DNA of 64,000 bases from Auritidibacter ignavus (GTDB lineage Bacteria; Actinomycetota; Actinomycetes; Actinomycetales; Micrococcaceae), in contig NZ_RDQR01000013.1 of NCBI RefSeq assembly GCF_003703835.1, forward strand, positions 1-64,000. The letters run 5' to 3'. Below, piece after piece: positions 1-19,877 of this stretch. Within the stretch, counting starts at the first letter, position 1, and every line of letters begins with the position of its first letter. The notes under the pieces were generated by a model. The model did not search any database. It was not told where the DNA came from and was given only the letters and a program-made list of their open reading frames with translations. The position numbers were made by a program, and so were the translations under genes.

Positions 1-930
1 CCGCTGATCGGCCACCACACCCTGCTGGCATCAAGATCCACCGCCGCGCCAGCTAATCGAACATCCGGGGATTATTTGTCTGAGGCACGGCCTACCTTTC
101 GCGGGGATCTTGACATGAGGCACCCCGGAGATGCTTCATTTGAACTACTCCCTACGCGACCAGTTCGACAGTTGGGAAATCTGGGACAACAACCGATACT
201 TTTAAAGTGGCGACGGGCAGCCCCCATGGTGGACAGTGGCACGCCAGCGGCAAGGAATGACCAAACCGCAGCCACCGTACAAGCAGCCGGACTTGACAGA
301 TCAAAAGTGGACTCCCCGTCAATCTTCCAGGAATTGATAATCGCGCAGGTGACCCGTCAGATCACTCGGGAGGAAGCGGAAGCGCTACTGGCGTAAACCA
401 GCGTCGCGCAGCGGACATGACCGAAGCGGAACGCCACGAGGCTATCGTCGATATGAACAACCGCTTGCTGGACGGCGCAATCGACGTGGAGCCGCGATAA
501 GCTGCCGAACGCGAGTAAAATCCGGCGCCTACACAAGGCATTGCAGGATCGGGGGCTAGACGTTGGTTTGGACCAGATGGGCGTAGCCAGCGACCAGTGG
601 GGGTTCGCTTCTCCCATGTTGGACAACTACCGCCGGACGGGGAGCCTAAAAGGTGTTGAGCTCCGCTGTACTCATCCGGGCATGCTTCCCTGGGGCTAAA
701 ATCCCTACGGTAAACGTACTGTCCAAAAACATTCTCGGGACACGCACATTCCGTCTCGTCTTCTATTGCAACACCACGGATAGACACCACCCGGTTACGC
801 TCGAACAAAGCATCGAACTCCCCCACGCACTACCCCTTCGCTCCATACGAGAAAAGAAGCTTCCCGTTTTGAGAAGAATCTTTCGAAAAGACCCGTTACA
901 TTTATTTATAGGTCCTTCTAGGGTATTTCT
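1..930. other. accessory region with no intact gene
   Basis: I find no convincing full-length gene here. Several short stretches read like protein but are cut by stops or frame changes: 131-205 (ends SWEIWDNNRYF, 24 codons after ATG), 417-500 (starts MTEAERHEAIVDMNNRLL) and 502-699 (contains RRLHKALQDRGLDVG). An open frame ending at 396 closes with ITREEAEALLA. All are on the plus strand, in different frames. This is what decayed genes beside an insertion sequence look like, but I recognise no family and assign no function. Parts around 840-930 are more AT-rich than the rest of the window. Confidence 0.4.
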
Positions 931-974
931 TAGGTCTATCCAAGGAGCTGGTCGCTGGCTCTGGTATGGCTGTG

Positions 975-1140
975 TTGCCCTGTCATTTCATGGTCCGGGG
1001 GGTGTTGCCGCCAGAGGTCCAGGACGCGCGTTGACTTCTCATAGGGATGCGGCCCAAGCAGTGTGTTGAGGTCTGTTCGTCACGTGGGTGCAAGCATCGG
1101 GTGTCATGATCACAGCGGCCTTGCTACCAGCAGTGAGGAA
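975..1140 (+). ncRNA. candidate IS110 bridge RNA (seekRNA)
   Basis: IS110-group elements encode a guide RNA of roughly 170-180 nt in the non-coding left end upstream of the transposase. This stretch has the right position and length. A stem can be drawn from GATGC (1046-1050) to GCATC (1094-1098), continued inward by CCCA and TGGG and closing on a loop of about 28 nt. An earlier GTCC (993-996) can pair with GGAC (1022-1025) around a loop of about 25 nt. GGGGGGTG at 997-1004 is exactly complementary to CACCCCCC at 2372-2379 near the right end of the element. Two internal loops with one complementary to an element end is the expected architecture, but folding was done by eye. Confidence 0.45.
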
Positions 1141-1147
1141 GACTGCC

Positions 1148-2356
1148 ATGACAACAACCTACGATGTGATCCTGGGGCTAGACGTTGGTAAAAGCGCACA
1201 TGACGGATGCGCTCTGACAACCACCGGCGAGAAACTCTACGACCGGGAATTACCGCAAGACGAAACCGCATTGCGAGACGTCATCGTTCAGCTCCAAGGG
1301 CACGGTTCAGTGCTGGTGGTGGTCGATCAGCCTAACACCATTGGTGCCTTACCGATCGCGGTGGCCCGAGACTGTGGCGCCACCGTGGCATACTTGCCGG
1401 GCTTGGCGATGCGCAAGACTGCTGATCTGTATCCCGGCCGGTCCAAAACTGATGCCCGGGACGCGTTCATCATTGCTGATACTGCCAGAACCATGCCCCA
1501 TACGCTACGAGCCGTGGATCGGGAATCTGATCTGTTCTCGGCGTTGAAAGTGCTGGCTGGGTTTGATGATGACCTGGCTCGGGAATGTACCCCAGCCATC
1601 AACCGACTACGATCGTTGCTGGTGCACATTTACCCGTCACTGGAACGAGTCTTCACCGGCACCGTCCTCACACGGCCCATTGTCCTGGAGTTGTTGATTC
1701 GGTATCACGGACCCCACGGCCTGCAGGCTGCTGACAAATCTGGGGTAAAACGCTGGGCGAAAAATCATGCCCGCAAAGACCCCTCCGCGTTGATCGACCA
1801 GATCTTCGCGGCCCTAGCTGAGCAAACGGTCACCGTGCCTGGAACAGCTACCGTGGAACTGATCATTCCCAGGATGGCCGCCCAGATCAAAGAGCTCAAA
1901 GCTCAACGCGCTCTGGTGGCCACCGAGGTGGAAGCGATGGTCGATGCTCACCCTCTTACCCAGGTCTTGATTTCTATGCCAGGAGTCGGAATCAAGACCG
2001 CCGCCACGATCCTGCTCACTGCAGCAGACTTCAGCTCCTTCCCCACCCCAGGTCACCTGGCCACCTACGCCGGCATTGCTCCCGTAACGTGTCGCTCTGA
2101 GACCTCGATCCGAGGTGAGTCCCCGGCCCGTTCTAGCAATAAACAACTCAACAACGCCTTATTCCGATCCGCATGGGTGGACTCCTGCCACGATCCGGTA
2201 TCGAAGGCCTACTACGACAAAAAACGCGCCGAAGGCAAACGCCACAACCAAGCCGTCATCGCCCTCGCCCGACGCCGATCCGACGTCCTGTTCGCCATGC
2301 TCAGAGACGGCACGTTCTACGAATCTCGCCCAGCACAACTTGTTCCAGCAGCTTGA
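1148..2356 (+). CDS. IS110-family transposase
   Basis: 402 residues. The N-terminal half is the RuvC-like DEDD domain: the first aspartate is in GLDVGKSAHD (D12), and the last two are in SKTDARDAFIIADTAR. The second acidic position falls in VVVDQPNTIGA, with Asp where many IS110 members have Glu. The C-terminal half is the Transposase_20 domain, beginning at SMPGVGIKTAATIL and containing the RSSNKQLNNALF segment with the catalytic-serine region. The ATG at 1148 is chosen over upstream in-frame starts because GAGGAAG lies just before it (about 1133-1140) and family members begin a few residues before GLDVG. The frame is intact, so the enzyme could be active with a guide RNA from its 5' flank. 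Confidence 0.93.
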   Translation: MTTTYDVILGLDVGKSAHDGCALTTTGEKLYDRELPQDETALRDVIVQLQGHGSVLVVVDQPNTIGALPIAVARDCGATVAYLPGLAMRKTADLYPGRSKTDARDAFIIADTARTMPHTLRAVDRESDLFSALKVLAGFDDDLARECTPAINRLRSLLVHIYPSLERVFTGTVLTRPIVLELLIRYHGPHGLQAADKSGVKRWAKNHARKDPSALIDQIFAALAEQTVTVPGTATVELIIPRMAAQIKELKAQRALVATEVEAMVDAHPLTQVLISMPGVGIKTAATILLTAADFSSFPTPGHLATYAGIAPVTCRSETSIRGESPARSSNKQLNNALFRSAWVDSCHDPVSKAYYDKKRAEGKRHNQAVIALARRRSDVLFAMLRDGTFYESRPAQLVPAA

Positions 2357-2379
2357 CGAAAACGATAGAAGCACCCCCC

Positions 2380-19649: not shown

Positions 19650-19862
19650 TGTCCCCGCTCTGTTCAAGACCTGAGAGTTTTAGCCGCACTCGGTCGGGAC
19701 CGGGTCCGGTTTTGCACCGTCGGTGAGACCTGAGTGACTCAGGGCTACTTTCCAGAGTTGCCTAACACAAGCGATTCTGTGACCTGAGAGATTCTTGGGG
19801 GTGTTACTCCTTCGGTACCTCCTCCGGTGTTGCCACCGAATGAGATTCTCCCGCCTGCGCTC
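19650..19862 (-). promoter_or_regulatory. gcvT riboswitch: tandem glycine riboswitch upstream of gcvP
   Basis: Read on the minus strand, the first aptamer (about 19862-19744) shows GCGGGAGAAT, ACCGAAGGAGTAA, AATCTCTCAGGTCACAG and CAACTCTGGAAAG in the order of the known glycine aptamer. The second (about 19743-19650) shows CACCGACGGTGCAAA, AAACTCTCAGGT and GAACAGAGCGGGG. A CACGAC/GTCGTG hairpin (19634-19650) follows, about 30 bp before the gcvP start, and could be part of the expression platform. Tandem glycine riboswitches commonly activate gcv operons when glycine is abundant. Confidence 0.9.
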
Positions 19863-19877
19863 AACGGCATCACCGTC

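What the first reader, a model, noticed from the sequence alone, without database searches (positions are those of the whole stretch)
940..1147. Candidate bridge RNA of an IS110 element
The non-coding stretch upstream of an intact IS110 transposase can be folded by eye into two looped stems (GTCC/GGAC near 993-1025; GATGC...GCATC at 1046-1098). An 8-base segment (997-1004) is exactly complementary to the right end of the element (2372-2379). IS110-group enzymes use such an RNA to choose target and donor. If real, this is a programmable recombinase with its guide, in an actinobacterial subfamily whose second acidic residue is Asp.
Basis: partly seen in the sequence, partly recalled or inferred. 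Interest (0 to 1): 0.65.

Follow-up and report, generated by a model that had tools for sequence, protein, structure and literature searches.

The report
Bridge RNA of a C-run-targeting transposon
A small jumping gene in an actinobacterium carries, as its known relatives do, a guide RNA that matches its own two ends and seems to point it at runs of C; this copy looks like a recent patchwork whose guide and right end no longer fit well, and a second jumping gene in other species aims its own guide at this RNA's gene.

Summary
The non-coding stretch lies inside an IS110 element (about 892-2379) and is a conserved, covarying RNA with a target loop and a donor loop: a bridge RNA. The 8-base complement (997-1004 / 2372-2379) is exact, but it lies in the target loop, and the two stems drawn by eye are not the conserved ones. 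Across relatives the donor guides change together with the element ends (RNA AUAGGGAC, AUAGAGGC, AUAGAAGC with right ends of the same letters; RNA GUAAC, GUAAU, AUAAC with left ends GTTAC, ATTAC, GTTAT). The target loop reads CCC(CC) and GGGGGG, and insertions sit at C-runs, though how many C belong to the element is open. The window copy is a mosaic: 2206-2364 is identical, 159 of 159 bases, to an element of another subfamily, and brings a right end that its donor guide fits poorly; it may be handicapped. The second acidic residue is Asp in 79 of 83 records (4 unresolved). In passing: a second IS110 clade whose bridge RNA matches this RNA's target loop is inserted exactly there in eight genomes. 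New member of a known kind; the IS110-on-IS110 targeting is the surprising part.

The parts
892..2379 (+). IS110-group element; both outer edges lie inside C-runs (892-894 and 2374-2379), so the exact crossover base cannot be fixed
   Evidence: own-genome copies L008/L009 align from 892/891; L012 copy stops at 2379; flanks of relatives are unrelated outside these points
894..899 (+). right donor (RD) sequence CGTTAC at the left end
   Evidence: its reverse complement equals the RDG in 65 of 71 element records (counting changed RD sequences with their own RDG); this copy's RDG has 1 mismatch
893..1122 (+). bridge RNA gene region (5' hairpin, target-binding loop, donor-binding loop); true transcript ends unknown
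   Evidence: alignment A1, RNAalifold, pair count
959..1017 (+). target-binding loop with its covarying stem (959-970 / 1007-1017)
   Evidence: helix 1: 5 of 10 pairs with changes on both sides, 93.8% of cells paired
975..980 (+). left target guide TTGCCC (C-run half)
   Evidence: between the two clades the number of C here goes with the C-run at the left junction
997..1004 (+). right target guide GGGGGG plus TG, probable handshake bases; complementary to CACCCCCC at the right end
   Evidence: conserved in A1 and A2; handshake role inferred from PMC11208158 passages
1023..1105 (+). donor-binding loop and its stems
   Evidence: helices 3-5: 13, 5 and 7 pairs, of which 6, 0 and 5 change on both sides
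1041..1049 (+). left donor guide AUAGGGAUG; against this copy's right end ATAGAAGCA: 4 Watson-Crick, 4 wobble, 1 mismatch
1079..1084 (+). right donor guide GUCACG (sister copy L009 has GUAACG)
1148..2356 (+). IS110 transposase/recombinase; DEDD positions D12, D60 (Asp for Glu), D102, D105; aligned catalytic Ser S317
2206..2364 (+). 3' segment identical over 159 bases to an element of another subfamily (L234), which is interrupted beyond; breakpoint at about 2205
2365..2373 (+). left donor (LD) sequence ATAGAAGCA at the right end

Best explanation
This is the bridge RNA of an actinobacterial IS110-group element. The RNA from the left end folds into a 5' hairpin and two internal loops. [quoted passage not shown] The first loop recognises the target: a CCC(CC) arm and a GGGGGG arm read the two strands of a run of C, and the recombinase joins donor and target inside that run. 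The UG after the G-run can pair with the CA just before the C-run of the right end, as handshake bases that hold the exchanged strand. Shown here: element borders, RNA covariation, guide/end covariation, C-runs at insertion sites and at several uninterrupted sites. Inferred from IS621: transcription, RNP formation, strand exchange, the core being CC. In the window copy recombination has replaced the 3' end, so its left donor guide and right end fit poorly; it may move only weakly or with help from sister copies.
For: Structure: 29 sequences, 95.6% of cells paired, 16 of 38 pairs with changes on both sides, covariation score 0.309 against 0.151 in shuffles (0 of 500 as high) and at most 0.081 when slid. 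Donor guides: 20 distinct LDG/LD pairs, mean 7.25 of 9 matches against 6.52 when permuted, p = 0.0008, with three badly extracted pairs (six records) left in; 8 or 9 matches in 55 of 70 records. RDG perfect in 65 of 71 records, including two compensatory types. Target: at the left junction 44 of 64 distinct flanks have 4 or more C (p = 4e-8 against 0.35), at the right junction 56 of 61 have 6 or more. At uninterrupted orthologous sites a C-run of 4 or more overlaps the insertion point in 12 of 26 sequences against 4 of 257 control positions, 5 or more in 5 of 26 against 0 of 257. LTG with 4 C or fewer: 3.52 C at the left junction (n = 31); LTG with 5 C: 5.20 C (n = 30), p = 2.6e-8, not corrected for relatedness. 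Mosaic: 159/159 with L234 at 2206-2364; 59/60 with L010 at 2114-2173.
Against: No RNA or activity data. The single-sequence fold is not better than shuffles. How many C belong to the element is not fixed: if its right end carries six, there is no excess of C beyond them (22 of 56 against 20 expected), and in the clade with a short C-arm, to which the window belongs, the left flank shows no excess beyond CCC (12 of 31 with 4 or more, 11 expected by the same 0.35). The 26 uninterrupted sequences come from only 6 sites, 17 of them from one; 2 of the 6 sites (L130, L050) show no C-run, and for L019 the flank does not line up base for base. Right ends that do not fit the rule exist: L022 has one C, L023, L025 and L054 lack the end. 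LTG/target covariation rests on two clades. No Rfam family matched at gathering score. The window copy's own donor guides are imperfect.
Confidence: 0.87

Rival explanations
1. The conserved leader is only a 5' UTR or translational control element of the transposase, not a guide RNA.
For: It lies directly upstream of the transposase start and is structured.
Against: It would not explain why its loop arms match both element ends with compensatory changes between subfamilies, nor the CCC/GGG arms and C-run sites.
Confidence: 0.04
2. C-run insertion is a protein preference, or an appearance given by C-runs that belong to the element ends, and the target loop plays no guiding part in this family.
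For: Target loop guides hardly vary, so target/guide covariation is thin; with six C counted to the right end and three to the left, the window's own clade shows no excess of C in its flanks.
Against: Right ends with 4 or 5 C and a tandem junction with 4 C argue against six fixed C; uninterrupted sites are C-rich at the insertion point; LTG C-count tracks the left-junction C-run; in the sister IS110 clade the same loop dictates varied targets (39 distinct flanks, own guide 7.56 nt shared against 4.83 swapped, p = 0.0002).
Confidence: 0.18
3. The window element is fully intact and active as it stands; the donor-guide mismatches are tolerated wobble pairs.
For: Of nine left-donor positions four are Watson-Crick and four wobble; transposase reading frame intact.
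Against: 55 of 70 records match 8 or 9 of 9; the RDG has a mismatch that sister copy L009 lacks; the 3' end is a recent replacement.
Confidence: 0.3

Closest known systems
IS621 bridge RNA and recombinase (Durrant et al. 2024, PMC11208160; Hiraizumi et al. 2024, PMC11208158)
   Same: RNA in the left end, 5' hairpin, target loop then donor loop, left arms matching one strand and right arms the other, discontiguous right-donor pairing possible (an extra U in GUAACG-U-GGG), handshake bases after the right target guide; DEDD and aligned catalytic Ser
   Different: Target guide is a homopolymer (C/G run) kept across genera rather than a varied sequence; Asp in place of Glu60; only about 150 aa of the C-terminal half aligns significantly by sequence
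IS110-group elements with seekRNA (ISEc21; Siddiquee et al. 2024, PMC11187229)
   Same: guide RNA upstream of tnp with matches to both target strands
   Different: ISEc21 has a sequence-specific target; here the target is a C-run
ISAar29 (named in the legend of Durrant Extended Data Fig. 10)
   Same: an IS110-group element with a predicted bridge RNA; from its name probably an Arthrobacter element (recalled, not looked up), possibly of the same subfamily
   Different: its sequence and figure were not available to me, so kinship is unknown

Membership tests
IS110 family, IS110 group | DEDD RuvC-like domain plus Transposase_20 domain | tested here: met
   PF01548 1.8e-44, PF02371 1e-17; NF033542 above cut-off
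IS110 family, IS110 group | second acidic residue Glu (IS621 E60) | tested here: not met
   Asp at position 60; D in 79 of 83 records, 4 unresolved, 0 E. A conservative change kept through the subfamily; the curated IS110 models still include it, so I do not treat it as excluding membership
IS110 family, IS110 group | catalytic serine of the Tnp domain | tested here: met
   residue 243 of PDB chain 8wt6 (= S241 of the paper; offset 2 worked out from the DEDD positions) aligns with S317
IS110 family, IS110 group | long non-coding left end, short right end | tested here: met
   256 nt before the start codon, 23 nt after the stop
bridge RNA | covarying two-loop structure inside the left end | tested here: met
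bridge RNA | donor loop arms match right end (same strand) and left end (opposite strand) | tested here: met
   met across the family with compensatory changes; imperfect in the window copy
bridge RNA | target loop arms match the insertion site | tested here: inconclusive
   CCC/GGGGGG arms and C-run sites agree, but the number of C that belong to the element is open and a homopolymer match is weak evidence
bridge RNA | shared core dinucleotide at the crossover | tested here: inconclusive
   crossover lies within a C-run, CC likely but not placeable
bridge RNA | RNA is made, binds the recombinase and directs recombination | not testable with these tools
   needs RNA sequencing or biochemistry

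The most novel reading that the evidence does not exclude
The conserved target loop of this RNA family is itself prey: a second IS110 clade has a bridge RNA whose target guides (CAACACCCCC and GATCCG) read the antisense strand of ATGATCC-GGGGGGTGTTG and is inserted exactly there, splitting the bridge RNA gene, in eight genomes of several genera; a further clade is aimed at the right end (TTGAC.AAAAC/CATAG) of such elements. RNA-guided transposons programmed against the guide-RNA gene or donor end of other RNA-guided transposons.
Probability: 0.85. Interest if true: 0.72.

Novelty: new member of a known kind. Interest (0 to 1): 0.52.

Why it matters
It extends bridge RNA anatomy, with natural guide/end compensatory changes, to an Asp-for-Glu actinobacterial subfamily and points to a natural homopolymer target. 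The window copy is a natural experiment in which recombination has separated a donor guide from its end. The nested clade suggests that a functionally constrained guide loop, because it cannot change, can become the docking site of a rival RNA-guided transposon; that is directly testable.

Tried and rejected
Rfam over the whole window at gathering score: no IS110 RNA family matched, only a glycine riboswitch. Single-sequence folding: no signal, so the by-eye stems were not taken as evidence. The 8-base complement as a donor guide: rejected, since it lies in the first loop and the donor guides lie in the second. A left-flank target motif beyond the C-run: only a weak excess of G next to the run; the p-value printed is inflated because that position is non-C by construction. 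RNAalifold on the wider 39-sequence alignment A2 gave fewer pairs (23, 10 with changes on both sides), perhaps because one MAFFT alignment blurs the donor stem of the more distant subfamily; A1 was used for the pair count. Viral contigs: no relative. [quoted passage not shown] A within-genome uninterrupted site (L192-L195) did not settle the target. Structure prediction and a covariance model were not run. Literature: the listings showed no paper on C-run targets or on IS110s aimed at IS110s; three papers were opened, in passages, and in two of them one section as well. The library lacks most subscription papers, preprints and ISfinder, so this is weak evidence of novelty. On rechecking the C-run reading proved less firm for the window's own clade than I had written; I lowered the best explanation from 0.90 to 0.87 and raised the second rival from 0.12 to 0.18.

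Full report
WHAT IS THERE. The window holds one complete IS110-group element at about 892-2379. The transposase (1148-2356, 402 aa; P0001) matches PF01548 and PF02371 and the NCBIfam model 'IS110 family RNA-guided transposase'; its C-terminal half aligns with the solved IS621 and ISCro4 recombinases. DEDD positions are D12, D60, D102, D105 and the serine aligned with IS621 S241 is S317. Position 60 is Asp where IS621 has Glu; Asp was found in 79 of 83 element records, the other 4 unresolved, Glu in none (a few records are the same copy held under two ids). Two truncated own-genome copies (contigs C15 and C38, which end inside the element) align from window 892 and 891; a third copy (C44) aligns up to exactly 2379. 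The stretch 940-1147 is therefore inside the element.

THE RNA. A pattern scan of one genome for each of 84,980 species gave 46 homologous loci. I aligned 29 left-end sequences: the window, 2 own-genome copies and 26 of the 46 loci; the other 20 were duplicates, near-duplicates, over-long, truncated or lacked a recognisable left end. The consensus fold has 38 pairs in five helices. Counting them: 95.6% of cells form standard pairs, 16 pairs show changes on both sides, covariation score 0.309 against 0.151 +/- 0.008 in 500 shuffles (none as high) and 0.050-0.081 when the partner is slid. Because the structure came from this alignment and the sequences are related, these controls are not probabilities, but the excess is large. 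One measure is less striking: further pair types 46 against 41.7, reached by 10 of 500 shuffles. Helices 2 and 4, in which the guide arms pair with each other, hardly vary and say nothing. The window sequence alone folds no better than its shuffles (z = +1.63; 194 of 200 at least as good).

THE DONOR LOOP. In the second loop the 5' arm repeats the right end and the 3' arm is the reverse complement of the left end, the scheme described for IS621 (PMC11208160: passages, section 12). The pairs change together: RNA AUAGGGAC with right end ATAGGGAC; AUAGAGGC with ATAGAGGC; AUAGAAGC with ATAGAAGC; UUAGGGGC with ATAGGGGC; and at the other end RNA GUAAC with GTTAC, GUAAU with ATTAC, AUAAC with GTTAT. 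Over 20 distinct LDG/LD pairs the mean is 7.25 matches of 9 against 6.52 when permuted (p = 0.0008); three pairs that my pattern extracted badly (records L016, L112, L044, L115, L105, L108) were left in. By record, 55 of 70 match at 8 or 9 of 9. The right donor guide is a perfect complement in 65 of 71 records; L052 is counted as a miss there because of my pattern, though its alignment shows the matching guide.

THE TARGET LOOP. The first loop carries mostly three to five C on its 5' arm (a few have two, and L051/L053 none) and five to seven G (nine in one) on its 3' arm, followed by UG, in nearly all relatives. Insertion flanks are otherwise unrelated. My search patterns themselves asked for at least two C at each junction, and ten decayed, duplicate or misplaced records (L046 among them) were dropped, so 'always C' cannot be claimed. 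Within that, the left junction has 3 C in 20 of 64 distinct flanks and 4 or more in 44 (22 expected at 0.35; p = 4e-8); the right junction has 6 or more in 56 of 61. Right ends missed by the pattern include L028, L040 and L059 with five C and L053 with four, but also L022 with one; L023, L025 and L054 lack the end. If the element brings four C, 50 of 51 sites had C5 or longer, against 0.35% of background positions. The four rests on one tandem junction (..ACACCCCGTTAC.., L101), which may not be the circle junction. If instead six C belong to the right end, there is no excess beyond them (22 of 56 against 20 expected). Elements whose 5' arm has five C have longer left runs (5.20, n = 30) than those with four or fewer (3.52, n = 31; p = 2.6e-8), a comparison of mostly two clades and so not independent; in the second group, to which the window belongs, 12 of 31 have 4 or more C, no more than chance. 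Uninterrupted orthologous sites, 75-87% identical, are the most direct evidence: a C-run of 4 or more overlaps the insertion point in 12 of 26 sequences against 4 of 257 control positions in the same sequences, and of 5 or more in 5 of 26 against 0 of 257; 17 of the 26 are relatives of one site, and of 6 sites 4 have such a relative and 2 (L130, L050) have none. That last step is inference.

THE WINDOW COPY IS A MOSAIC. At 2114-2173 it is 59/60 identical to own-genome copy L010, whose right end reads ACAGGGGACACCCCCC. From 2206 to 2364 it is identical, 159 of 159 bases, to L234, an element of another subfamily in another genus, while upstream of 2206 the two differ at many places; beyond 2364 L234 is interrupted by a nested element. 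The bridge RNA of that element (L119, the same copy) has the left donor guide AUAGAAGCAC, and its protein is identical to the window's over residues 356-400 but 62% over 301-352. The window thus pairs a lineage-1 guide (AUAGGGAUG) with a lineage-2 right end (ATAGAAGCA): four Watson-Crick, four wobble, one mismatch. That L010 and L011 are the 3' parts of the copies whose left ends are L008 and L009 is assumed; the contigs break inside the element. The right donor guide also has a change (GUCACG), shared by L008 but not by L009. I expect weak donor recognition by this copy.

A SECOND IS110 AIMED AT THIS RNA. In L021, L060 and two copies in G200 the left end of the first element is interrupted, exactly at GATCC|GGGGGG of the target loop, by another IS110-family element in antisense orientation. 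Its RNA has the arms CAACACCCCC and GATCCG, which match the antisense target CAACACCCCCC/GGATCAT. Relatives with the same junction lie in G077, G121 and G169 and, found by an 18-base junction pattern in 394 class and 396 order genomes, in G1045 and G1069 (the third genome hit, G002, is not such an element). That makes eight genomes and nine copies; L203 and L249 show only the right junction, so their guides were not seen. Close sisters in G225 and L204 carry other guides and sit at other, matching sites. Over 39 distinct flanks the own guide shares 7.56 nt with the left flank against 4.83 when swapped (p = 0.0002); six loci without a recognised left end and one masked flank were left out, flanks with the same last 14 bases were merged (L199 into L021), some flanks such as L229 and L232 were cut at a wrong point, and several rows are copies of one element. 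A further clade (L233-L236) has guides for TTGAC.AAAAC/CATAG; in L233, L234 and L235 it sits in the right end of elements of the first kind, in L236 at another site with similar letters.

WHAT IS KNOWN. Durrant et al. predict bridge RNAs in 85.7% of IS110-group elements, so finding one is expected; among six drawn there is ISAar29, probably an Arthrobacter element, whose kinship to this one I could not check. Siddiquee et al. report many different targets and trouble with ends in ISfinder (section 13). No paper listed by my searches describes C-run targets or IS110s programmed against IS110s, as far as titles, abstracts' openings and the three opened papers show; the library is incomplete.

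VERDICT. A real bridge RNA, a new member of a known kind with a probable homopolymer target, in a mosaic copy. The nested IS110 clade is the part a specialist would find surprising.

Noticed in passing
L021:968-2131 (-); L060:932-2359 (-); L196, L197, L199, L203, L244, L249, L250: A second IS110-family clade (P0002 and relatives) inserted in antisense exactly in the target loop of the first family's bridge RNA gene in eight genomes, with matching target guides where the guide could be seen.
   Followed up: yes
L233-L236: Another IS110 clade with guides for TTGAC.AAAAC/CATAG; in L233, L234 and L235 it is inserted in the right end of first-family elements.
   Followed up: partly
L033/L034 and L030/L039 (two Corynebacterium contigs): Two copies of the same element lie about 4 kb apart on one contig with what looks by eye like an ABC transporter gene between them, like a composite transposon; the same right flank is seen in L032, L036 and L038.
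   Followed up: no
window 552-566 and 1174-1188: Exact 15-base repeat GGGGCTAGACGTTGG, at the transposase start and in the left flank; possibly a remnant of another copy, though tblastn finds no convincing protein match there.
   Followed up: partly
window 19762-19863 (-): Glycine riboswitch (RF00504, 46.1 bits, above gathering).
   Followed up: no
L012 (G000:C44): Decayed IS110 of another subfamily (47-49% identical in the body) whose last 173 bases are 84% identical to the window's 3' end.
   Followed up: yes
L101 (G170:C1:984000-988500): Tandem pair of elements with a right-end/left-end junction ..ACACCCCGTTAC.., possibly insertion of one into the C-run of the other.
   Followed up: partly
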